In this document: positions 6,349 through 28,894 of the stretch, piece after piece
How positions within the stretch are numbered: the stretch's first letter is position 1
Layout: every line of letters begins with the position of its first letter
Assembly (NCBI GenBank): GCA_012032135.1
Contig: JAAURS010000007.1
Location: 1 to 33,238, forward strand
Length of the DNA stretch: 33,238 bases
Origin: Acaryochloridaceae cyanobacterium RU_4_10
GTDB taxonomy: Bacteria > Cyanobacteriota > Cyanobacteriia > Thermosynechococcales > Thermosynechococcaceae
Direction of reading: 5' to 3'
Notes under the pieces: generated by a model
Told to the model about the DNA's origin: nothing
What the model saw: the letters and a program-made list of their open reading frames with translations, nothing else
Databases searched by the model: none
Program-made: the position numbers and the translations under genes

Positions 6349-7255
6349 GTGCTTCATCGTTCAACTCTGGTTTCTCTATGTGTGTTGTGTGGCCTTTTAG
6401 GTGTTGCTCCGTCAGCCCTTAGCCAAGTTTATGTGCCCCATACCGTAGCACCTAGCACCAAAGAACTCCAGCAGACGGGGATAGCCTTATTAAGAGAAGC
6501 GTTGCAACTCGCTCAATTTCAACAGTACGATCCAGCCCTAGCCCGCACCAAATTAGCAACCCAATTATTGCCAAACTCTGAGGAAGCCTGGGCATTATTG
6601 GGTGGGCTTTACTTGAGTACTGAGCAATTAGATCCTGGTATTCAGTCCTTAGAAAAATCCCTGGCCCTCAATCCTAAAAATGCAGGGGTAAACTTTAGTT
6701 TGGGTTCCGCTTATTTCCGTAAGGGAAATTATCCAGCCGCAGTCCGCGCTCTAGAAACAGGTCTTAAAGTCAAGCCCGATGTGCCAGAAGCTCTCTTCGA
6801 TCTGGGCAATACCTGATTTCCGGATGGGGCGCTTTGAGGATGCCATCGGTACCTATAAAAAAGCGGTTACCAAGGATCAGAAGTTTTGGCCTGCAATCAA
6901 CAATATTGGCCTGATTCAATACGAACAAGGAAATGTCGATTCGGCGATTCAAAACTGGAAGACTGCGATCGCGGTGGATGAAAAGAACACCACAGAACCC
7001 AAGCTAGCCTTAGCCGTTGCACTCTACAAACAAGGCAAAACAGACCAGGGCATTACCTTGGCAACATCGGCATTATCTTTGGATCGTCGTTACGGGGATG
7101 TGGCATTCCTCAAAGATAATTTGTGGGGCGATCGTCTGATTGCGGATACAAAAACGATTCTGGCAACACCCAAAATTCGGGATACTTTGGCAGCTCTACC
7201 ATCAGTTCCAGACAAAGATCTTAAAAGTAGCCCTAAATCTAAACCTAAGCCATAA
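6349..7255 (+). CDS. Secreted or periplasmic TPR-repeat protein (frameshifted as assembled)
   Basis: The protein starts at GTG 6349, eight bases after GGAAGG (6335-6340). It begins with a signal peptide (LVSLCVLCGLLGVAPSALS, cleavage near residue 25). Tetratricopeptide repeats follow, for example AWALLGGLYLSTEQLDPGIQ, VNFSLGSAYFRKGNYPAAVR and, after the shift, MGRFEDAIGTYKKAV, then INNIGLIQYEQGNVDSAIQN. The first frame stops at 6814-6816. Removing G6815 restores LGNTYFRMGRFEDAI and a protein of about 301 residues with a lysine/proline-rich end. TPR proteins of this type act as protein-binding scaffolds; the partner is unknown. The exact repair of a TPR consensus points to a sequencing error or a very recent mutation. 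Confidence 0.8.
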
Positions 7256-9525: not shown

Positions 9526-10403
9526 ATGCACATATCATTCGCATACGGATTAAAAATCGCCTCTGAGCGGCCTTTGCTAGACCCCATTCACTTCAGCGGT
9601 AAACCTGATGTGTGGGTTCGGTTGGGTTCTTTAGATTCGTTATCTTCTGAATTTAGTCAAGGTCAAAATATTGTCTTTGAATTGCCGTGCAACCTGAAGT
9701 TCTCAGTTCGGAACGGCTGCGAGATCGTCGTGGATACTCCTTCTGAAATCGATTTCTCATTAATCCGCCCTCATATTTTGGGATCTGGAATGGCATTTGT
9801 ACTCAGACAACGGGGTTTTTTAGTGCTCCATGCCAGTTGTGTGGCCAAAGGAGATGAGCGATCGCATTTTTGGGTGGATCTGGGTGGGGTAAATCCACTT
9901 TGGCCTCTGCGTTTCACCAACAAGGGTATCGGCTAATTACGGATGATGTGATGGCCATTCAAATGGATGCTCCCATCCCCCAAGTAATTCCCAGTTTTCC
10001 TGAAGTGAAGTTGTTGCCCGATGCAGCAGATGTTTTGCAGGTATCCGATCGAACCGCATTAGGGCAACCTTTGGGTTACAAACAAACCCAGCGTCTAGAC
10101 GCGCAATTTACCCCCCATCCCGTCTCCCTCAGACAGTTTTACGTTCTGAGGCTGGGCGAGCAGCACCAAATTGACCCTATGCTCCGCACCCAGTCTTTTG
10201 TGGAGCTGATTCAACATTCAAGAGCTCTCAAAGCCCTCAAGGATCCCTCTGTAAAGGTGCAACATTTCCATCAGTGCAGTGAGTTAGCTAAGGTGGTGCC
10301 GATGGGATATCTTCAGCGCCCCCGATCGCTGGAGCAGTTGCCTCAAGCGATCCGAGGGATTGAAGAACATCTGGGCTATCTCAGTCCCAGCGATCGCCGT
10401 TAA
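9526..10403 (+). CDS. HPr kinase/phosphorylase-like protein (frameshifted as assembled)
   Basis: The gene spans two frames. The first, from ATG 9526, gives an N-terminal domain that ends with FLVLHASCVAKGDE. The second carries FLGGSGWGKSTLASAFHQQG, a P-loop (G118-SGWGK-S124 in the joined protein), and YRLITDDVMAIQ, which resembles the DDV metal site of HprK-type kinases. Restoring one G at the GCGATCGC site (9858-9865) joins them as DEAIAFLGGSGWGKST, about 292 residues. The LHAS...GxSGWGKST...LI.DDV order is typical of the HprK-like serine kinases found in many bacteria outside the PTS. The substrate is unknown, and no hpr gene is visible here. Confidence 0.75.
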
Positions 10404-16368: not shown

Positions 16369-19300
16369 ATGCAACTCATCCAACGTAAAGTCTTGTTGTA
16401 TCAGGAAGGCACTTCCGGTAAGGTTTACGAGATTGACCTCTATCAAATCGGCGATCGCTATTTGGTCAATTTCCGTCATGGAAGACGGGGAGCATCTCTG
16501 AATGAAGGCACTAAAACCGTCGCTTCGGTGTCTACGTTAGGGCAAGCGCAACGAGTTTTCGATCGGATCCTGAATGAAAAACTGAGTGAAGGCTATCGCG
16601 ATATTACAGATTCAGGGGTGAGTGAGGCTTCACCCGTTGCTGCTCCTGTACCCGTACCCACCACTCCACTGCCTATCATTCCTCCCCTACCTCCCTCGGA
16701 TGATGCGCGAGAGCAGAGGATTTTAGGATATTTACAAGCCGCAGTGAGTGGTGCTGAGCGACCACCCCACAAAAAACAATGGAAACTCGATCGTATCATT
16801 TGGCGGGCTGGAGTGTTGCAGCTATGCTCAGCAGCACCTCTGTTGATGCAGTTAATGCAACAACCCTCGGTCAGTCCACTGCGGCGTTATGGTTTGGCCT
16901 GGGCGTTGGGATGGTGCGGAGATGAGCGTGCAATCCCCCTTTTAGAGCAGATCTACCGCAATGAGACGATGCCAGAACACGTCCGGCGGATTGCCTTAGA
17001 AGCAATCTTTAAGCTGAGTGCGCTGAAGCGAGACGAGCTGCGCTTGGAACTCGTGCAACAATTGCCTGAAGATATCCGCACGGCAATGCAACAAGGGACG
17101 TCAGTGGAAGAAGTGCTGACCGTCGTGGAACGCCATCTGGATGAGGGTGATGGGCCGCAAGCGGTGTCGGTCAGTTACAGCGCTCAGCGCAATAGCCTCA
17201 CGCTCAATTTGGGCGGGGGGAGTCCCGTACAACCCTTTGCATTATTGGATCGGCTCTATCACATTGATAACGACTTGACTCGTCCTGTTGTTTTGGCAAT
17301 TCTCCAAAAAGCGCCCTTTGTTCCCCCTTATTTCCAACGGATTCGGCACATTTTTAAAGTGGCTGAGTATCGTCGGGACGCAGAAGTGTTGGCATTGTTA
17401 ACTTATCGTTTTGACCAAGAATTTGCTGTTCAGATTGGTCGAGACCCCAGAACAGGAAAACTTATCCGTAAAAATGACGGGGTTACGGTTCAGTACAGGC
17501 AATGCAATCCAAAGCTCACAGATACTCAGGTTGCCTACCAGAGTAAAACCCGTAGTTATTTGAGACGCAGAATTTGGCGATCGCTCCGTCATCTTGGAGA
17601 CCTTGCCAGTCCTGATTATGTGAGATTGGCAACCCAGATTCTGCTGCAATACACAGATTCCGATGCAGAACCTGCCAGAGAATCGGTTTCTTATCGTTGG
17701 AACTGGCAAACCTATCAACGTGAAGAAACACGGCGGACGAGTTGGGATCGGTTTGCAAAGTTTCTGACCCTCAATCACATCCTGTACGAAAATAGTCCGC
17801 GTTATGAATTAAAAGCGAGATCCAAGGCTTGGAGATGTAAAAGCGCTTACAAGTCCGGCGATCCAGCGCCCCAAGTGAGAGAAGAAGCCTTTCCCCAGCT
17901 CTGGGAGCAGCAACCTGCTGCCTTATTGAATTTGCTTCTAGAAAGTCAATGCACTCCTGTTCATGAGTTTGCAACTAAAGCCCTGCGAACCTGCACTGGA
18001 TTTTGTCAGAGGATAAGCCTAGAGTCGTTGTTGAAATTGCTTTCTCGTCCCTATGAAGTCACGGCACAATTAGGTTTTGAATTGGCTCAGCAACGGTATC
18101 AGCCTGCAAATCCCAATTTTGAATTGGTACTGGCGATCGCAAACTGTGCCTACAGTCCAGCTCGCGTTCAAGCCCAGCAATGGGTTGCAGACCAACGCGA
18201 CACTTTTTTGCAGCAGGGCACATTGATTGCAGGCTTAGTTGTCAGTCCTTACGCCGATACCCGAACCTTTGCCAGGCAACTCCTCAATACTGCGATCTTG
18301 GATGATGCCACCGCGCGATCGTTGATCGGACGCATTCTTGCTGCCCTGTTAAGCCTAGACGAATACCAAGGGACTTTAGCCAACGATGCTGCGGAGACCT
18401 TGCGGATTGGCTTTGCGCCACAATTGCGATCGCTCCGGTTAGAAATCATTCTGGATCTGTTGCGGCATCCCTTACCAGAACTCCAAACCCTGGGCGCGCA
18501 GATTCTGTTGAACCATGAAACGCCTGTCGTCGAGTTGCCTGCGGGATTAATCGATGCCCTCTTGTCATCGCCCTACGAGTCCGTGCGCGCGATCGGGGTG
18601 CGACTGTTTGGACAATTACCCGACGAGCAGTTACTCCAAAAATCACAACTCTTGATTACGCTGGTTACCCATGAGATTTCCGATCTGCGGGAAGCCATTC
18701 GACCTGGGATTCGTCGGTTGGCAACCCATCATCCTGAGTTTGCCCAGCAGCTTGTAACCCATCTGCTGTCTATCTTGCGATCGCGGAGCCTCATGAAGGT
18801 GTTCATAGTTTTATTGCCCAAGTCCTGAATCAGGATATTCCTGGATGGATGCACCAAGCTACCCAGGAAGCTACCTGGGATCTATTGCGAGTTCCGTCAA
18901 GCGCAGCGCAGGAAGTAGCAGGTCGCGTCATTGAGACCCGTGCGGCGGAATGGGCGCAGAGTCTGGAAACGAGTGCGATCGCCCTCCTGACTCATCATGA
19001 AGTCATGGCCGTGCGCCAGTCTGGGTATCAGATGCTGCGCCAGAGTTTGCCACGTCTGAGGCAGTCGGCGATGGAGTTGGTCAATAGCGTGATGGTTTTT
19101 GATTCGCGCTGGGCCGATGCCAAGCAGTTTGGGTTTGAACTCTTTGGCCAACTCCTTCAGCCAGAGGATTTTACCCCTGCGGTGGTGGTTAGCATTTGTG
19201 ACTGTGTCGATCCTGCGGTGCGTAAATTTGGGCGAGACTTATTGACTCAATGTTTCCAAAGCTGCGACGGTCAAGAGTATTTGGTGAAGTTCAGCGAGCA

Positions 19301-19640
19301 TCCCGCCAGCGATATGCAGATTTTTGCGAGTCACTATCTAGAACGTTACGCAGGCGGTCATCCCGATCGCTTACAGGAGCTTCAGCCTTATTTTGCAAGA
19401 GTTTTGGCGCAGGTCAATCGGGGACGGGTGGCAAAACAGCGCATTTTTGCGTTTCTGGACGCGGAAGCCACTCAGAGTGAAGCTGCCGCAAACATTGTGA
19501 CCGATATTCTCACTCGCCAATCAGTAGCAGTGGCGATCGGGGACAAATCCAGGGCGATCGCAACACTCCTCAAGATTCACCAAATGTTCCCCCATTTAGA
19601 CGTGCCGATTCAAGTTACACCCATCGCAGTTCGCACCTAG
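16369..19640 (+). CDS. WGR-domain + HEAT/ARM-repeat protein of the retron-like module (frameshifted as assembled)
   Basis: The joined product has about 1090 residues. Residues 1-76 form a WGR-like domain (YLVNFRHGRRGA near 31-42, then a helix ending NEKLSEGY), a fold that binds nucleic acid or mediates assembly. A Pro-rich linker (about 88-110) follows, then a very long all-helical part made of HEAT/ARM-type repeats (e.g. LRRYGLAWALGWCGDERAIP, VRRIALEAIFKLSAL). The first frame stops at 18826-18828. The other frame continues EPHEGVHSFIAQVLNQDIPG to the stop at 19640. Restoring one G before the GCGATCGC at 18777-18784 joins them. The gene opens a co-directional run leading to the reverse transcriptase, and the next gene begins 21 bases on. 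It fits the 'ARM' component I recall for type XIII retrons. The effector mechanism is unknown. Confidence 0.75.
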
Positions 19641-19661: not shown

Positions 19662-21311
19662 ATGGAATTCAATTACGCTTATAACGGCAACTCCAATATT
19701 TCAGGAACGGGCGATCGCACCCAGATGTCCTTTGCGCCAGACTTGACGCGAGAACCCACATTCTTTCGGGGCGAACTGCGCCAAAATATCGCCTTTCGCG
19801 AAGCCATGAGTGCCTTGCATGATGTGGTGGTGTCCGACATGAGATTTAAGCCTAAAGATAAGACCGCCTATAAAGAATGGGCCGCCCAACGCAATCAGAT
19901 TGATTGGGATCTGGTCAACGCCCAACGGCGAGACGTGGCCGATCGCATGCGCGAGTTGCAAGCCGAGCTAACGGGTCTCCATCAGCGCCGGAACGACCGC
20001 ATGTCAACCTACTACAAGGCCGTGCGCCAGTATTTCGACTATCTCTACCAGCGCGATAAAGATGCCTGGTTTGTCCTAGATCCGGTGATTACCATTCACC
20101 CCGATGAAGTGTTTTTTGAATGTTTCAGCCAGGATGAATCCAGCTATGGTCGCTTGGGTGTCAGCTACGAGGTGTTTCAAAACATCAACGAATTTGCCTG
20201 TGGCACTACCAACATTGATTATTCCTCCGCCCTCTACGACGAATTCCAAAAAATCCGCACCTACAAAACCACACAGTTTGAAGTAGATCCCTCTGGCTTT
20301 GAAGTCCAAACAAGTCAGTCGGCCAGCTACAAGGAAGTCAAGATTGACCTACCCGATAGCTGGGTGCGGGGTTTTCTCCAAGTGAGTTCGGCCATGTCAC
20401 TCCCTGCCATTCACTTCGACCTCCACCCGATGGATGTCTACAACCTGTGTTTTGTCCTGCGCCGTCGCAAGGAAAAGAAAGGCCCCCGCAGCCTTCGCTA
20501 TTGCCTTACTCCCGGCGAACCCATCCGCGTCATTTTTGACCCGTGGGGGCTGGAGATTGTCTGCGATCGCTCGTTCTACACGGGCAACAAACCCGAAGAA
20601 GTGCGCGTCTGGGGTCGGCGGCGGCTCCTGATTCTGGAGCGCCTGATTCCAGTTGCCCGTAAGTTTACAGTGCATTTGCTGGGGACTGGATTGCCTTCTT
20701 TTTATGTCGCTGACCTCAACGATTTGACATTTACTTTGGGGCTTTCGGGGTGGACGGCTAACGATTGGGCAAAAGCTGGCAATTTCGATCTCCTCGCACC
20801 GCGCATGACGGTGGACGATTGGACGAAACAGCAGGTCTTCAATGCATTGAAAGAAACCTGGGTAGAATCTCCCGATGCGTTGGCACAGCGGCTGAAGCTA
20901 GATCGAGGTGTTGTTTTAGGCGCGTTGAGCGCTTATACCCAAGCGGGACGGGCGATTTATGACTTGAACAAGCAGGTTTATCGAGTCCGAGAGCTATCCC
21001 GAGATCCTTTGCCGATGGCACAATTACGCTTTGCCAACGATCGGGAGGAGAAAGCGACTCGGTTTTTAGACCAAAACAAAGTACAAATTTCGTCTTCCGT
21101 GATGGATTTAGACAATACGCTCAGGCTAAAGGGCACGCTGCAAGGCAGTACTAAAACTTACGAACCTACTGTCGCAATCGATCGCGATGAGCGCATTGTC
21201 CACGCAGAATGTACTTGCAACTGGCACCAACAGAACAAACTATTTAAGGGACCTTGCGAACATATCCTGGCACTGCGGATGTGTCATGCGCGATCGCTGG
21301 TGCAGGTGTAA
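19662..21311 (+). CDS. Winged-helix + SWIM zinc-finger protein (WHSWIM-like retron component)
   Basis: The protein has 549 residues. A central part is followed by a winged-helix-like segment around residues 380-450 (ALAQRLKLDRGVVLGALSAY, then AGRAIYDLNKQVYRVREL). The C-terminal SWIM zinc finger has C517-x-C519 and C532-x-H534 in HAECTCNWHQQNKLFKGPCE. SWIM fingers bind DNA or protein. A helical stretch at 85-110 (RRDVADRMRELQAELTGLHQ) may be a coiled coil. The order winged helix then SWIM matches the name WHSWIM given to a protein of type XIII retrons, as I recall it. It begins 21 bases after the WGR-HEAT gene, so the two form one operon. It should act together with the HEAT protein and the RT; its biochemical activity is not evident. 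Confidence 0.78.
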   Translation: MEFNYAYNGNSNISGTGDRTQMSFAPDLTREPTFFRGELRQNIAFREAMSALHDVVVSDMRFKPKDKTAYKEWAAQRNQIDWDLVNAQRRDVADRMRELQAELTGLHQRRNDRMSTYYKAVRQYFDYLYQRDKDAWFVLDPVITIHPDEVFFECFSQDESSYGRLGVSYEVFQNINEFACGTTNIDYSSALYDEFQKIRTYKTTQFEVDPSGFEVQTSQSASYKEVKIDLPDSWVRGFLQVSSAMSLPAIHFDLHPMDVYNLCFVLRRRKEKKGPRSLRYCLTPGEPIRVIFDPWGLEIVCDRSFYTGNKPEEVRVWGRRRLLILERLIPVARKFTVHLLGTGLPSFYVADLNDLTFTLGLSGWTANDWAKAGNFDLLAPRMTVDDWTKQQVFNALKETWVESPDALAQRLKLDRGVVLGALSAYTQAGRAIYDLNKQVYRVRELSRDPLPMAQLRFANDREEKATRFLDQNKVQISSSVMDLDNTLRLKGTLQGSTKTYEPTVAIDRDERIVHAECTCNWHQQNKLFKGPCEHILALRMCHARSLVQV

Positions 21312-21464: not shown

Positions 21465-22082
21465 ATGGTTGCAATTGGCATTACCAGAGCCATTACCAAT
21501 CTCAATGAAGCGCACACTAAACTTGGTGTTTCGCCCAGCCAAGATACTCACTTTTTTACAGAATGGCAAGGCACCCTCCCTTCGCTGACCGATGCTGAAA
21601 AAGCAAGGCTCGATCGCCTTAAACAGCGCTATTTTTACTATGCCGACAGTGGAGCTATCACCGAAGGCACCGTTAACTTGATTTTGCTATCTCCACTCCT
21701 CGAAACCCTTGGCTTCATCGATCCACCCTGCCAAGTTCGAGGTGAAAAATACATCCGCTTTGAAATTGAGGATGGAGATACTCTCCTAGAGGGACTCATT
21801 GATGCCCTCGTCATTAAAGAACGTCTATGGCTGATTGTAATTGAAAGCAAACGTTACGGCTTTAGCGTCCGACAGGCGATCGCCCAAACTCTAGCCTACA
21901 TGGTGGGTGCTTCCAGTTCTCAGGTTTTTGCGCTCATTACAACAGGTGAAGACTATCTGTTCGTTAAACTAGACCGATTCTCTTCACAGTATGCATTGTC
22001 CGACAAATTCACACTCAGCACCGCCAATGGCAACGAACTTTATCAAGTGGCTCAAATTCTGAAGTATTTGGTGATGGTGTAG
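21465..22082 (+). CDS. PD-(D/E)xK nuclease-like protein (type I R-subunit N-terminal-like)
   Basis: The protein has 205 residues. The core is LLEGLIDALVIKERLWLIVI followed by ESKRYGFSVRQAIAQTLAYM. D113 and E127-S-K129 form a D...ExK site, and Q137/Q141 are in the following helix, as in HsdR N-terminal-type nucleases. The region before it (GTVNLILLSPLLETLGFIDP, then GEKYIRFEIEDG) has the usual helix and strand preceding the catalytic D. It stands alone, without helicase or methylase genes. It lies in the same direction between the SWIM and vWA genes of the retron-like module and is a candidate DNA-cutting part of it. It could also be one of the many solitary nucleases of this type in cyanobacteria. 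Confidence 0.7.
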   Translation: MVAIGITRAITNLNEAHTKLGVSPSQDTHFFTEWQGTLPSLTDAEKARLDRLKQRYFYYADSGAITEGTVNLILLSPLLETLGFIDPPCQVRGEKYIRFEIEDGDTLLEGLIDALVIKERLWLIVIESKRYGFSVRQAIAQTLAYMVGASSSQVFALITTGEDYLFVKLDRFSSQYALSDKFTLSTANGNELYQVAQILKYLVMV

Positions 22083-22168: not shown

Positions 22169-24010
22169 ATGCAAGTTAGTTATTCCCTCAGTTCTCCAGT
22201 CATTCCGGTCTCAAGCCCATCCACCGTAGACTTATTGATCGGGTTCACATCCGAAGCCGCAGGTGCAACCCCCTCCCGCCGTCCACTCAACCTTAGCCTC
22301 GTCATCGATCGCTCCGGTTCGATGGCAGGCGCACCCCTCCAATATGCTATTGAAGCCGCCCAACGCCTAGTCGAACAACTCACCCCGGAAGACTATCTCT
22401 CCGTCGTCATCTACGACGATCGTGCTGAAACCATCCTGCCCCACGGCCCCGTCCAAGATAAACCCCAAATTCAAGCCCTCCTCCGCACCATTAGAGCAGG
22501 TGGCTGTACCAACCTCAGTGGCGGCTGGCTCATGGGCTGCGACCACGTTCAGTCTCAGCTCAGTGGCGATCGCCTCAATCGCGTTCTATTGTTGACCGAC
22601 GGCCAAGCCAACGTCGGCGTCACCGACTCTCCCATCCTGACCAATACGGCCAGAGATAAAGCCACCCAAGGCATCATCACCACAACCCTTGGATTTGGGA
22701 GCTACTTCAACGAAGATTTGCTGATCGGCATGGCCAGTGCCGCAGGTGGAAACTTTTACTTTATCCAATCTCCCGATGATGCCTCCGACGTGTTTCGGAT
22801 TGAATTGGAAAGTTTGATGTCCGTCGCGGCCCAAAACCTCAGCATTACTTTGCAACCTGCGGCTGGCGTGACCATCGCTCAAGTGCTCAACAGCTATCGC
22901 ACTCAAACCCATGGCAGCGCGCTGCAAGTGAACCTTGGCGATGTTTATACCTCTGAAGCCAAACAAATGGCAGTGGAATTAGCAATCGCCCCCCAAACCA
23001 CCCTCGGCGATCTTCCCCTTCTGAGCGCAACCTACAGCTACCAAGCCATCGTCAACGAAAGCATTCAATCCTTTAGCAATGACCTTGCGATGCAAATCAC
23101 CGTAGGTTCAGCGGAGGCAGCAGTCCAAGCCAAACCCCAGCAGACCGTCATCGAACAAATCAGCAAATTTCGGATTGCCAAAGTCAAAGACGAAGCGATC
23201 GCTCTAGCTGACCAAGGCGATTTCAAGACGGCCTCTGCAAAACTCCGCAGTACCCTTGAAACCTTGCAAAATCAGTCCCTTCAAGAATCCTTTGAAGTGG
23301 CAGAGGAAATGGCCCAACTGGACCACTACGCCCAAAAATTGGAAAGCCGCCAGTTCAATGCCTCCATCCGCAAAGAGATGCGCGACCAAGCCCACCAGGC
23401 CCAAACCCGCGATCGCCAAGAACTCAAGCTCAGAGGTATCACCGCAGGCTCGGCGGACAGTCTAGAACAGGTTTCCAACGCCGATGGTGGGGTTTTGGTT
23501 CAATGTATTAGAGAAGGCGGCAAACTCAGAATCCGCGTGGTGTCTGAGGGATTTGAGGGCGATCGTAATGTCCAGTTCCCGCGCAGCATCCGCCAAGAAG
23601 GCGTCACCTACGTCGTAGAAAATCTCCAACTCTCCGCCGATGAGAGTTTTTATCGTGCCTCTGGGAAGATTTGTCGTTTGGTTCGCCCAGGGGAAGAACA
23701 TCTTTTCTCATCGAGCGGATCGACGCGTCAACCCGCTGCAAAACGCCAGAAGGCGGACGCCATTTCTTTGGCAGATTTGGAGACCACGGATACTGTAGGG
23801 GAGGGCGTACTGCTGCAATGCCTGAAAGATGGCAAAAAGCTCCGAATTCGGGTCGTTTCAGATGGTTATAGTCCCGTTTATAACATCCGTTTTCCCCGTA
23901 GTATCCGAGAAGAAGGGGCATTGTATGTTGTGGATGAAGTGGAAGAAGTCGCGAGCGGTGGTTCCTATATTGCCTATGGTAAGATTCGTCGCTTTGTCCA
24001 AACAATCTGA
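22169..24010 (+). CDS. von Willebrand factor A domain protein with duplicated C-terminal domain
   Basis: The protein has 613 residues. The vWA domain (about 38-215) has a complete MIDAS metal site: D47-R-S49-G-S51, T114 in GGCTNLSGG, and D144 in LLLTDGQANVG. A beta-rich part and a helical stretch rich in Glu/Gln (about 325-420) follow. The C terminus carries two copies of a domain of about 68 residues, at 439-506 and 544-610. Each reads GVL(V/L)QC...G.KLRIRVVS.G and then PRSIR.EG..YVV, separated by a disordered linker. There is no signal peptide, so it is cytoplasmic. vWA proteins usually work with AAA+ or repeat partners to assemble complexes. Here the neighbours are WGR-HEAT, SWIM and a retron RT, suggesting a part of that system. 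Confidence 0.8.
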   Translation: MQVSYSLSSPVIPVSSPSTVDLLIGFTSEAAGATPSRRPLNLSLVIDRSGSMAGAPLQYAIEAAQRLVEQLTPEDYLSVVIYDDRAETILPHGPVQDKPQIQALLRTIRAGGCTNLSGGWLMGCDHVQSQLSGDRLNRVLLLTDGQANVGVTDSPILTNTARDKATQGIITTTLGFGSYFNEDLLIGMASAAGGNFYFIQSPDDASDVFRIELESLMSVAAQNLSITLQPAAGVTIAQVLNSYRTQTHGSALQVNLGDVYTSEAKQMAVELAIAPQTTLGDLPLLSATYSYQAIVNESIQSFSNDLAMQITVGSAEAAVQAKPQQTVIEQISKFRIAKVKDEAIALADQGDFKTASAKLRSTLETLQNQSLQESFEVAEEMAQLDHYAQKLESRQFNASIRKEMRDQAHQAQTRDRQELKLRGITAGSADSLEQVSNADGGVLVQCIREGGKLRIRVVSEGFEGDRNVQFPRSIRQEGVTYVVENLQLSADESFYRASGKICRLVRPGEEHLFSSSGSTRQPAAKRQKADAISLADLETTDTVGEGVLLQCLKDGKKLRIRVVSDGYSPVYNIRFPRSIREEGALYVVDEVEEVASGGSYIAYGKIRRFVQTI

Positions 24011-24063
24011 ACGTTTACTCAAAAGACTGTTTTTTTGGGTGCGATTTTGGGCAAAATATAGAG

Positions 24064-24290
24064 AAAGCCATTGTGAGGTCTAACCCCTTGCAATCCGAGT
24101 GATGGATCGTCACTCTTGTCCTTAGCCGAACCACGCATCACTGGCTTGTTCTTAACTGTGCGGGACTGTGGTACCTATGGGAATCACGGTGTAGCTTCCA
24201 AGAAGCTGATGTACCCATAGGTACCACGTCCCGCTTGCGTTGAACAATCCAGTCCTTAGAGGTCTACGAAGAGGCACCTGCAATGGTTTT
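24064..24290 (+). ncRNA. Retron-type msr-msd non-coding RNA (predicted)
   Basis: This gap directly upstream of the RT has the organisation of a retron RNA. The ends pair as a1/a2: AAAGCCATTG (24064-24073) with CAATGGTTTT (24281-24290), 10 pairs with one G-T wobble, then AGGT (24076-24079) with ACCT (24276-24279). The first half has msr-like stem-loops, such as GAGTGA/TCACTC (24097-24115) and AGCC/GGCT (24124-24145). The second half is a long msd-like hairpin. GCGGGAC (24160-24166) plus TGGTACCTATGGG (24169-24181) pair with CCCATAGGTACCA (24214-24226) plus GTCCCGC (24228-24234), 20 pairs with one small internal loop. The 32-base loop contains AGCTTC-CAA-GAAGCT (24193-24207). The priming guanosine and exact template ends cannot be fixed by eye. 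Confidence 0.78.
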
Positions 24291-24297
24291 AATTAAC

Positions 24298-24322
24298 TAG
24301 AGACGCTCTATGGGCGTCTCTA
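24298..24322 (+). promoter_or_regulatory. Perfect hairpin enclosing the RT start codon
   Basis: TAGAGACGC (24298-24306) and GCGTCTCTA (24314-24322) form a perfect 9-bp stem with loop TCTATGG. The first ATG of the RT frame (24310-24312) is in the loop, and a T-rich stretch (TTTCTATT) follows. It could sequester the start, act as a weak terminator separating ncRNA from RT mRNA, or mean that translation really begins at ATG 24349. GAGACG/CGTCTC hairpins are, as I recall, frequent terminator-like repeats in cyanobacteria. Confidence 0.6.
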
Positions 24323-25763
24323 TTTCTATTCACCGCTTGGCACAGCTCATGACCGATCGACCCCGCACCCGCCAGGAACTCTACGATCGCATTCGCGAAA
24401 GCTCCCGTGATGAAGTCATTCTAGAAGAGATGATTCGGCTTGGCTTCTGGCCCAATACCGATGGAGTTCCCAACGACCCCGCCACTGAAATTCGGCGAAT
24501 TGGCGAGATCCAGCGAGAATTACAAGAACTCCGCACCCAAAATACCCAACTCCATAACGAGGCTGCGCTTAAAAAACAAATGCTGAAAGAGCGCATGGCC
24601 GAAACTCGGCGTAAGCGAGCTGAGAATCAAGCAAAGCGCGAACAAGAACGGCTAGATCGTTCCGCTGCATGGGCCGCTCAAAAACAAACTGAAATTGTCT
24701 TCCTGGGCGAAGGGGTATCTGGCGGACTCAACCACCAAGAATCTAACTTAGAACGCCTTCAACAGAACAATTTGCCTATTTTGCACAACGCCGCAGATCT
24801 GGCGGCAGCGTTAGACATTACGGTCAATCAATTACGATTTTTAGCCTTCAACCGTCGCGCCTCTTACTATCTCTCACTACGTCCGCTTTAATATTGCTAA
24901 AAAAAACGGGTGGAGTGCGTTCGCATTTCAGCCCCCATGCCGCATCTCAAGAAAGTGCAGCAGTGGGTTCTGGATTCCATTCTTGAAAAAGTAGCCCTTC
25001 ACCAATCTGCCCACGGCTTTCGTCGCGGACGATCGATTGTCACCAATGCCAAGCCCCATGTGGGCGCAGAGATCGTAATCAATCTCGACTTTAAAGACTT
25101 TTTCCCTTCTATTTCCTACCCGCGAGTGAAAGGACTCTTCAGAGCTTTGGGCTATTCTGAAGCAGTCGCGACCCTTTTAGGACTTCTTTGTACAGAACCG
25201 GAAGTTGAAGAAGTCACTCTGGATGGCAAAACCTATTTTGTCGCGACCACCGAACGTCACTTACCCCAAGGCGCGCCCAGCAGTCCCGCTATCACCAATG
25301 TTCTGTGCCGCCGTCTCGACCGCCGGTTGAGTCAAATGGCCGCAGAACTAGGGTTTGCCTACACCCGATACGCGGATGACTTAACATTCTCAGGCTCTGT
25401 GGATGCCCATCGCAAGGTTTGCAATATCCTAAAACGAACCGAGCGCATTGTGGCCCATGAAGGGTTAACCATCCACCCCCAAAAACCAGAGTTTTGCGAA
25501 AATCTCAACAGCAGGAAGTGACGGGTGTGGTGGTCAATCAAAAACTAAATATCGATCGCAATACGCTCAAATGCTTCCGCGCCACGCTCCATCATATTGA
25601 GAAAGACGGTCTAGCAGGAAAACAATGGGGCCAAAGCCCAGATCTGCTGAAAGCGATCGAAGGGTTTGCAAATTTTGTGGTCATGGTCAATCCCGATAAA
25701 GGAAACCAGTATCTAGAGCAGGTTCAGCGGATCAAGAAGAAATATGGTCCTAGAAAACGGTAG
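24310..25763 (+). CDS. Retron-type reverse transcriptase (four frameshifts as assembled)
   Basis: Joined across frames this is an RT of about 483 residues. It has a helical N-terminal part (SSRDEVILEEMIRLGFWPNT, then a long Glu/Arg/Lys-rich coiled coil). Next come ASTISHYVRFNIAKKTGGVR and RISAPMPHLKKVQQWVL, then HGFRRGRSIVTNAKPHVGA, INLDFKDFFPSISY (first catalytic Asp), LPQGAPSSPAITN, and the catalytic RYADDLTFSG. The retron-type VTGVVVNQKLNIDR and a thumb ending KKKYGPRKR follow. The repairs are: drop one T at 24864-24865, one A in the A run 24899-24906, one T at 24920-24921, and add one A in the run near 25484-25489. Each gives the family consensus exactly. YADD, the VTG block and the upstream msr-msd structure favour a retron over a group II intron or DGR RT. 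No maturase or endonuclease domain is present. Confidence 0.85.
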
Positions 25764-26370: not shown

Positions 26371-28100
26371 CTAATTTCCCAAGGCAACGCCTTCCCCTCG
26401 CGGATCGGCAGCTCCTTCTAGGGTATTGTCTGGTTTGACTAAGATCGAATTTGCGTTGCCCCAATGCGATCGCAGATCGACCTCATGCCCTCGTTTTCTC
26501 AACGCATCCAAGGTTGATGCATCTAAGCCATTTTCCTCAACCCGAAGCTTGTCTGGAAGCCATTGATGGTGAATCCGCGATGCTGCAACCGCCTGCCCCG
26601 CATCCATTTTGTACGCCAAAGTATTCAATAAAATCTGAAACACCGTCGTAATAATGGTGCTGCCGCCGGGACTCCCCACTGCCAGCTTCAGCTTGTTGCC
26701 TTCCGTCACAATTGTCGGTGTCATACTGGAAAGTGGGATTTTGCCCGGTGCGATCGCATTGGCCTTTTGGCCCACAAGTCCAAAGGCATTGGGAACGTTA
26801 GGGGCAACAGAAAAATCATCCATTTCATTGTTGAGAATAATACCCGTCCCTTTTGCCACCACCCCAGCTCCAAAGTTTAGATTCACCGTAAAGGTTAAAC
26901 TCACAGCATTCCGGTTTTTATCTACGACTGTTAAATGACTGGTTTCCATGGATTCGGATTTGCGTGAAAATCGCTGGATCTGTTCGGGAGAAGCCGCCTT
27001 GACTTCTGTGGCAGGTCGCGCGCGGGTCATAGAAATTTCAGCCCGACGCAGAGCTAAATAGACTGGGTCGATCAGCGCAGCCACAGGCACTGATGTAAAT
27101 CCCGGATCGCCCAAGTAGATTGCTCGATCGGCGTAGGCAATTTTCATCGCCTCTGCCATAAAGTGAATCGAGTCTGGGCTATGCCAGGGCTTTGCGTCTA
27201 AATTTGCGCCATTCCATAAATTCAAAAGCTGAATCAAATGCACGCCACCAGAGGATGGAGGTGGCATAGAACAAACTTTCATGGTTTTGAATGCGCCACA
27301 GACAGGCGATCGCCAAGTCGGTTTATAAGCTTTCAAGTCAGCTAAGGTCACTAAGCCGCCGTTGCGCTGCATATCCTGAGCGATCGCAGTAGCAATTTCT
27401 CCGGTGTAGAATCGCTTGGGGTCTTGGGCGATCGCTTTTAAGGTCGTCCCAAATCCTTTTGAATCAGTCGTTGTCCAATTTTTAAGGGTTGTCCGTTGGG
27501 CGCAAAAATGGTTTGGGCCGATGGATTAGTTTTAAGCATCTCAATGCGCATTTGCGTCGCTTGGGCGAGGCGAGAACTCACGACAAACCCTTGTTCCGCC
27601 AAACCAATGGCAGGTCGTACCACCGTTGCCCACGGGAGACGGCCATAGCGTTGCTGGACCTCTGCTAATCCTGCGATCGTTCCGGGAACTCCCACGGCTA
27701 AGTATCCATCGGTGCTGGCTTTAGGGCGAACTTTCCCTCGATTGTCCAAGTACATCGTGGAAGTTGCCTTGAGGGGTGCTTTTTCTCGGAAATCCAGAGC
27801 TTTGATTGTACCTGTTTCGGCTTGTCGGAATAGCAAAAAGCCGCCGCCGCCAATCCCTGTAGAAAAGGGTTCTACCACGGAAATGGCTAAGGCTGTTGCT
27901 GCGGCTGCATCTACTGCGTTACCACCCTGCTTCAGAATTGCCAAACCCGACTGAGTTGCTAAGGGATGAGCCGAAGTAACCATGCTATGAAGGCTTCGGG
28001 TGGGCTGTATTGTCTTGCTCCAAGCAGCTTGCGGATTCCAACCGCTTAGACAGTAGATGCCAATGAATACGAAGGGTCTGCGGGACAGTTTAATGGTCAT
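26371..28100 (-). CDS. ggt: Gamma-glutamyltransferase (frameshifted as assembled)
   Basis: This periplasmic N-terminal-nucleophile hydrolase cleaves or transfers the gamma-glutamyl group of glutathione. The first frame, from 28100, has a signal-like N terminus (RRPFVFIGIYCLSGW), then HPLATQSGLAILKQGGNAVD, AAAATALAISVVEPFSTGIG and GGGFLL. The second has the small-subunit start ETSHLTVVDKNRNAVSLTFT, whose Thr after the Glu is the autocleavage and catalytic residue, then LNNEMDDF, PLSSMTPTIV and AVGSPGGSTIITTVFQ. One extra base in the three-base run at 27448-27450 (CCC on the + strand) joins them as DLGTTLKAIAQDPKRFYTGE. The joined length is about 576 residues, normal for the family. All catalytic parts are present once joined. 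Confidence 0.9.
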
Positions 28101-28353: not shown

Positions 28354-28894
28354 TCAACCCAAGCTACGATTACTACGATTACTGCAAACTTTTGCCTTCA
28401 AAATAACAGACTGCACATATTCGGTTTTTCCTGTGGTGTAGGCTTCGCGGTCTGCTTGAAACTGTTGAGCTAGATTGCGCTTTAGTTGGGCGTAGCGTTC
28501 TGCTTCTTCGGGATACTGACGCAGATAATCTCGAAACAACAGGCGCTCCCACTGTTCATTATGAGGTTCAACAATATGAACGTGGTGCGTGCGTGGACCA
28601 TTGGGCGGTAAACCCTTTACAAAGAACATCCGTGCTGGATCGGGGTTATCGCCAGCAATACTGATAGCTCAGCGCCTCAAGACACGGAATCACAATGGAG
28701 GAGGATTTAGAAAGCGATGGTACGCCCACTAGTATGTCGATAATGGGTTTTGCTGCCAGTCCTGGTACTGCCGTACTGCCAAAATGCTCAATAGCAAGGA
28801 TGAGATTTCCCAGAACTTCATGAATCCGTGCGGCTTCAATTTCAAACAAATGGGGCCAATTTGGGTCATAGTCAGCAATAAAAATATCATCCAT
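28354..28894 (-). CDS. GrpB-family protein (frameshifted as assembled)
   Basis: The GrpB/UPF0157 family has a nucleotidyltransferase-like fold. The first frame, from 28894, reads FIADYDPNWPHLFEIEAARI, then AIEHFGSTAVPGLAAKPIID, with the GST...KPIIDI motif of the fold. The second reads MFFVKGLPPNGPRTHHVHIV, then LLFRDYLRQYPEEAERYAQL, the usual C-terminal half. Removing one A at 28657-28658 (a T on the coding strand) joins them as YQYAGDNPDPARMFF, giving about 179 residues, normal for the family. Members occur alone or fused to dephospho-CoA kinase. Their reaction is not well established. Confidence 0.85.

What the first reader, a model, noticed from the sequence alone, without database searches (positions are those of the whole stretch)
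24064..24290. Visible msr-msd RNA with pairing ends and a 20-bp msd hairpin
The 300-base gap before the RT has a1/a2-like end pairing (10 + 4 pairs), msr-like stem-loops and a 20-bp hairpin with an inner stem-loop (AGCTTC/GAAGCT). This is the full layout of a retron RNA, found by pairing alone, in the right place and on the right strand. It would be a template for multicopy single-stranded DNA.
Basis: partly seen in the sequence, partly recalled or inferred. Interest (0 to 1): 0.85.

Follow-up and report, generated by a model that had tools for sequence, protein, structure and literature searches.

The report
Type XIII retron template RNA, cyanobacterium
The stretch encodes the structured template RNA of a known but little-studied class of bacterial retron (an anti-phage reverse-transcriptase element), here in a cyanobacterium, and the same RNA is conserved across at least eight bacterial phyla, sometimes far from the enzyme that should copy it.

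Summary
Window 24064-24290 (+) carries a1/a2 end pairing (11+4 pairs), an msr stem-loop, and a 21-bp msd hairpin with one bulge (reader: 20) and an AGCTTC/GAAGCT inner stem. It folds far below shuffles (z = -6.4). A profile built without the window finds it alone in 33 kb (E = 1.9e-47). In 41 relatives 92.7% of paired cells are standard (shuffled 72.7%), and 39 of 53 pairs show double changes. a1 pairs with its own a2 far better than with other loci's (47 against 24 +/- 9). The interpretation also holds: PADLOC models for all three type XIII proteins match (WGR-HEAT, SWIM, RT), and most relatives keep the order WGR-SWIM-ncRNA-RT. So it is a new member of a known kind. Not shown: transcription or msDNA. 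In this assembly the RT frame is broken in two places, as are other genes, so sequencing error and decay both remain possible. Unexpected: in 11 of 11 cyanobacterial genomes whose RT has no RNA beside it, the RNA is elsewhere, in 8 directly behind the SWIM gene, with one type XIII RT each. This suggests the RT acts in trans.

The parts
24064..24290 (+). msr-msd non-coding RNA, a1 to a2 (model R1 matches 24049-24311)
24064..24079 (+). a1 arm (11 + 4 pairs with a2)
   Evidence: own-versus-foreign arm test
24090..24090 (+). predicted branching (2'-OH priming) guanosine in TTGC, which aligns with TAGC in Nannocystis
   Evidence: alignment; the motif rule is from PMC6868368; inferred
24097..24115 (+). 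conserved msr stem-loop (GRTGG..CCAYC in relatives)
   Evidence: helix 2, 99% of cells paired, 4 pairs with changes on both sides
24140..24253 (+). msd base stems ACTGG/CCAGT, TTGTTC/GAACAA, AAC/GTT
   Evidence: helix 3, 7 pairs with changes on both sides
24160..24234 (+). msd hairpin, 21 pairs with one bulge; sequence hypervariable among relatives, pairing kept
   Evidence: (helices 4-5)
24193..24207 (+). inner stem-loop AGCTTC/GAAGCT
   Evidence: helix 6, all 4 pairs with changes on both sides
24266..24271 (+). conserved ACGAAG beside a2; predicted start of the template (cDNA 5' end about 24268)
   Evidence: 175-179 nt from priming G to CGAAG in nearly all relatives whose anchors were found correctly; inferred
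24276..24290 (+). a2 arm
24298..24322 (+). terminator-like hairpin followed by TTTCTATT between ncRNA and RT
   Evidence: 2 such sites found, 0.5 expected
24349..25763 (+). type XIII retron reverse transcriptase with N-terminal extension; YADD present; reading frame interrupted near 24.87-24.93 kb and near 25.48-25.52 kb
19662..21311 (+). SWIM zinc-finger protein, SWIM_XIII
   Evidence: 811.6 bits
16369..19640 (+). WGR-HEAT protein, WGR_XIII, split over two reading frames
   Evidence: profile 1-696 then 692-971
22169..24010 (+). VWA protein with two C-terminal copies (from 23477 and 23786) of a domain also found on type XIII propeller proteins and on two RTs; likely accessory

Best explanation
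24064-24290 is the msr-msd RNA of a type XIII retron. Shown by sequence: the ends pair (a1/a2); a conserved msr hairpin and a long msd hairpin follow; the RNA is conserved and covarying next to type XIII RTs; and the WGR-HEAT and SWIM proteins of the type are in the same locus. Inferred from characterised retrons: the RT binds the msr, primes from the 2'-OH of G24090, copies the RNA backwards from about 24268, and stops near the foot of the msd stem at roughly 24130-24140. That leaves a branched RNA-DNA molecule with about 115-145 nt of DNA folded into a long hairpin. The RT-msDNA complex would hold the WGR-HEAT/SWIM module (perhaps with the VWA protein) inactive until a phage disturbs it, after which the module harms the cell or the phage.
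For: Profile without the window hits only this place, E = 1.9e-47. Covariation: 92.7% of cells paired against 72.7% shuffled and 31.6-41.6% when slid; 462 double-change cells against 142. a1 pairs with its own a2 better than with foreign a2: mean 46.95 against 23.58, sd 8.61. Constant spacing of 175-179 nt from priming G to template start. PADLOC hits RT_XIII 125.5 + 350.4 + 104.8, WGR_XIII 760 + 317.5, SWIM_XIII 811.6 bits. Order WGR-SWIM-ncRNA-RT in most of 80 relatives from many phyla. RNA and RT co-occur in 242 genomes of the class: 16 both, 1 RNA only, 4 RT only (Fisher 2e-20). As DNA the predicted msd also folds strongly, z = -7.8.
Against: No transcript or msDNA data. The RT frame is interrupted in two places in this assembly, so this copy may be dead, though other genes of the window are also frameshifted, which points at least partly to sequencing error. 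Rfam has no matching family. In 14 cyanobacterial relatives the RNA is not directly beside the RT. The consensus structure was derived from the same alignment it was tested on, though that alignment was made by sequence alone. Exact priming and stop points, and the defence role, are inferred.
Confidence: 0.92

Rival explanations
1. A decaying, non-functional retron: the RNA is a relic, since the RT and the WGR gene have lost their reading frames.
For: The RT is interrupted in two regions and the WGR gene in one. The genome is a fragmented assembly from a genus whose most complete genome lacks type XIII RT and RNA. The window's a1/a2 is among the weaker in the set (score 28 against a mean of 47).
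Against: The RNA itself still fits the family fully (206.9 bits, all helices) and the YADD motif and SWIM gene are intact. Other genes of the window also show adjacent ORFs in shifted frames, consistent with assembly error across the contig.
Confidence: 0.25
2. The hairpin is only a transcription terminator or regulatory leader for the RT gene.
For: It lies directly upstream of the RT. A separate terminator-like hairpin sits at 24298-24322.
Against: The conserved fold is over 200 nt with a1/a2 end pairing and no T-run after the long hairpin. In 11 genomes the RNA persists away from the RT gene, which a leader could not explain.
Confidence: 0.03
3. The RT belongs to another retroelement (group II intron, diversity-generating retroelement or defence-associated RT) and the RNA is that element's RNA.
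For: Such RTs are common in cyanobacteria (PMC8867640).
Against: Best RT model is RT_XIII by over 100 bits. No Rfam group II intron or other family in the window. Retron-type a1/a2 and msd layout.
Confidence: 0.02

Closest known systems
Type XIII retrons (classification of Mestre et al. 2020, as coded in PADLOC-DB: RT_XIII, WGR_XIII, SWIM_XIII)
   Same: All three protein models match. Gene order WGR-SWIM-ncRNA-RT as in most relatives. The RNA belongs to one covarying family.
   Different: Here two extra genes (PD-DExK-like 21465-22082 and VWA 22169-24010) lie between SWIM and the RNA, and the RT frame is broken in this assembly.
Myxobacterial retrons Mx162, Sa163, Ne144 (RTs with extended N-terminus; PMC6868368 puts cyanobacterial retron RTs in the same group)
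   Same: RT with N-terminal extension; long msd hairpin; RNA of similar length (Mx162 transcript 241 nt; here about 227 nt).
   Different: The eleven other myxobacterial retron-type RTs tested (38-43% identical, presumably Mx162-like but not identified as such) have no RNA matching model R1. The msr-msd of type XIII is a family of its own; whether Ne144 itself is type XIII could not be settled.
Type I-III retrons such as Ec86 or Ec73
   Same: msr-msd upstream of RT, a1/a2 pairing, priming G in a TAGC-like motif.
   Different: Different RT clade (scores 140-195 bits against 350), different RNA and different effectors.

Membership tests
Retron (any) | Retron-clade RT with YADD motif | tested here: met
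   RT_XIII and other retron RT models; YADD in ORF 24910-25521; frame interrupted in the assembly
Retron (any) | a1/a2 inverted repeats at the ends of the RNA | tested here: met
Retron (any) | Conserved priming guanosine after a1 | tested here: met
   G24090 in TTGC is nearly invariant, TAGC in Nannocystis; priming itself untested
Retron (any) | msd hairpin conserved as structure | tested here: met
   17 of 17 pairs of helix 5 and 6 of 7 of helix 4 with changes on both sides
Retron (any) | Branched 2',5'-linked msDNA produced | not testable with these tools
   needs nucleic acid extraction
Retron type XIII | RT of the type XIII clade | tested here: met
   RT_XIII 125.5 + 350.4 + 104.8 bits over three frames; tree places it with Calothrix RTs inside cyanobacterial type XIII
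Retron type XIII | WGR-HEAT and SWIM proteins encoded beside it | tested here: met
   WGR_XIII and SWIM_XIII, same strand, 16.4-21.3 kb
Retron type XIII | ncRNA of the type | tested here: met
   leave-window-out profile E = 1.9e-47; the published PADLOC covariance models could not be run
Retron type XIII | Anti-phage function | not testable with these tools
   needs phage challenge
Mx162-like myxobacterial retron RNA | ncRNA homologous to that beside Mx162-like RTs | tested here: inconclusive
   R1 finds nothing significant beside 11 other myxobacterial RTs (best 11.7 bits); Mx162 itself was not available by name
Group II intron | Intron RNA detectable by Rfam models | tested here: not met
   no Rfam match in the window

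The most novel reading that the evidence does not exclude
In a group of cyanobacteria the type XIII retron has come apart: the template RNA stays directly behind the SWIM gene while the single type XIII RT sits at an unrelated locus and must find its RNA in trans. This would imply that the RNA's closest functional partner is the SWIM/WGR module rather than the RT, and that retron RT-RNA recognition needs no cis coupling.
Probability: 0.65. Interest if true: 0.6.

Novelty: new member of a known kind. Interest (0 to 1): 0.45.

Why it matters
Type XIII retrons are, in the papers that could be searched, without experimental work. A well-supported RNA model with a predicted priming G and template start makes msDNA production and defence directly testable in culturable hosts. 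The split loci offer a natural test of whether a retron RT can act in trans, and the hypervariable but paired msd stem suggests that its shape rather than its sequence is under selection.

Tried and rejected
Rfam at gathering threshold: no match anywhere in the window. Viral contigs: 42 RT relatives at 23-42% identity, none with an R1 match, so type XIII was not found on phage contigs. A second RNA copy in the window or the rest of this genome: none. RNA as leader or terminator: rejected because it persists away from the RT. Literature: the Mestre 2020 paper is not held; nothing found on type XIII experiments or split retrons. Three rows of the a1/a2 test (L035, L075, L097) were mis-anchored and only weaken the result.

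Full report
Where it lies. The window is contig C295 of a fragmented cyanobacterial genome (4.48 Mb, 442 contigs, 77% complete). Genes on the + strand: WGR-HEAT protein 16369-19640 (two frames), SWIM protein 19662-21311, a PD-DExK-like protein 21465-22082, a VWA protein 22169-24010, the RNA 24064-24290, and the RT 24349-25763.

The observation. The same sequence window is the lowest in a scan of the contig's + strand.

Homologues. An alignment of four RT relatives found 404 related stretches in 84,980 species; the best 80 were kept. A single-sequence search with the window RNA already hit most regions upstream of these RTs (for example 6.9e-28 for Pseudanabaena L032). A profile from these found the RNA within 450 nt upstream of 69 of the 83 RTs examined, the window included (one of these, L108, only at E = 0.08). 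It occurs in Cyanobacteria, Myxococcota, Planctomycetota, Acidobacteriota, Bacteroidota, Chloroflexota, Pseudomonadota and Thermodesulfobacteriota (origins).

Is it a conserved structure? In 41 sequences aligned by sequence only, the consensus has 53 pairs. Of the cells 92.7% form standard pairs against 72.7% after shuffling partners; 462 cells changed on both sides against 142; sliding the partners by 1-3 columns drops pairing to 31.6-41.6%. The a1/a2 arms lie outside this consensus because their register varies, so they were tested separately. Each a1 was scored against its own a2 and against the a2 of every other locus: own mean 46.95, foreign 23.58 with sd 8.61. The own arm is the best of all in 24 of 50 loci, and most of the rest are beaten only by a few loci, often close relatives. 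The distance from the presumed priming G to the conserved CGAAG is 175-179 nt in nearly all loci whose anchors were placed correctly.

Which retron? PADLOC models RT_XIII, WGR_XIII and SWIM_XIII match with large margins. In most of the 80 relatives the order is WGR, SWIM, RNA, RT. In 242 genomes sampled from the class, model R1 hits 17 and RT_XIII (E <= 1e-100) hits 20, with 16 in common (Fisher p = 2e-20, not corrected for kinship: several of the 16 are from one genus). The window RT groups with those of a Calothrix MAG and an uncultured cyanobacterium (support 99/82).

How it probably works. Priming at G24090 rests on alignment with TAGC in Nannocystis and on the TAGC/CAGC rule reviewed in PMC6868368. 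Template start near 24268 and a DNA of about 115-145 nt are inferred from the layout. The role of the protein module as an effector held in check by RT-msDNA is inferred from other retrons.

State of this copy. The RT frame is interrupted around 24.87-24.93 kb and 25.48-25.52 kb, and the WGR gene once. Other genes of the window are also split into adjacent frames. Intact RTs exist in relatives (L001, L003). Sequencing error is the likelier reason but decay is not excluded.

Beyond the finding. First, 14 cyanobacterial loci lacked the RNA within 450 nt of the RT; in three of them (L038, L047, L052) it lies directly behind SWIM and 1-2.7 kb from the RT with unrelated genes between. For the other 11 I predicted that the RNA would sit beside SWIM elsewhere (note). 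A whole-genome search found R1 in 11 of 11: in 8, immediately 3' of SWIM_XIII on another contig than the RT; in 3, apart from both. Each of these genomes has one strong RT_XIII. These are draft genomes, so the separation is a lower bound set by contig ends. On the RT tree the split loci fall in one cyanobacterial group, but not as a single clean clade. Second, ten or so other loci carry two copies of the RNA, mostly in tandem. Third, the msd stem diverges much faster than the rest (mean identity 0.37 against 0.71) while pairing is kept; two Pseudanabaena copies are identical in the core and 76% identical in the stem. Fourth, a 65-residue domain of unknown family occurs twice at the C-terminus of the window's VWA protein, at the C-terminus of propeller proteins encoded near many type XIII loci, and fused to the RT in L053 and L060. 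This links the VWA gene to the system.

Noticed in passing
L034, L037, L040, L041, L042, L043, L044, L046, L048, L053, L060 (genomes G058-G068): Type XIII RT genes with no msr-msd nearby; the RNA is elsewhere in all 11 genomes, in 8 directly behind SWIM_XIII, with one strong RT_XIII per genome.
   Followed up: yes
L038, L047, L052: Intermediate layout: RNA directly behind SWIM, with one or more unrelated genes between it and the RT.
   Followed up: partly
L035, L049, L057, L058, L071, L081, L082, L087, L088, L106, L108: Two or more copies of the msr-msd upstream of one RT, mostly in tandem.
   Followed up: partly
window 24160-24234 and the same region in relatives: The msd stem sequence is hypervariable (0.37 mean identity against 0.71 for the rest) while pairing is kept.
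   Followed up: partly
window 23477-24007; L053:1689-1916; L060:11477-11704; propeller protein in L003: A 65-aa domain without a significant Pfam match is shared by the VWA protein (two copies), WGR-propeller proteins near type XIII loci, and the C-terminus of two type XIII RTs.
   Followed up: partly
L034:9158-9871 and L047:9122-9895: An RNase III gene (with dsRNA-binding domain) lies directly upstream of the displaced type XIII RT.
   Followed up: partly
window 6349-7255, 9526-10403, 16369-19640, 24349-25763, 26371-28100, 28354-28894: Several genes appear split over neighbouring frames, which suggests an error-prone assembly.
   Followed up: partly
G038 (C121:3360-3622): A genome with the RNA but no RT_XIII at E <= 1e-100.
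   Followed up: no
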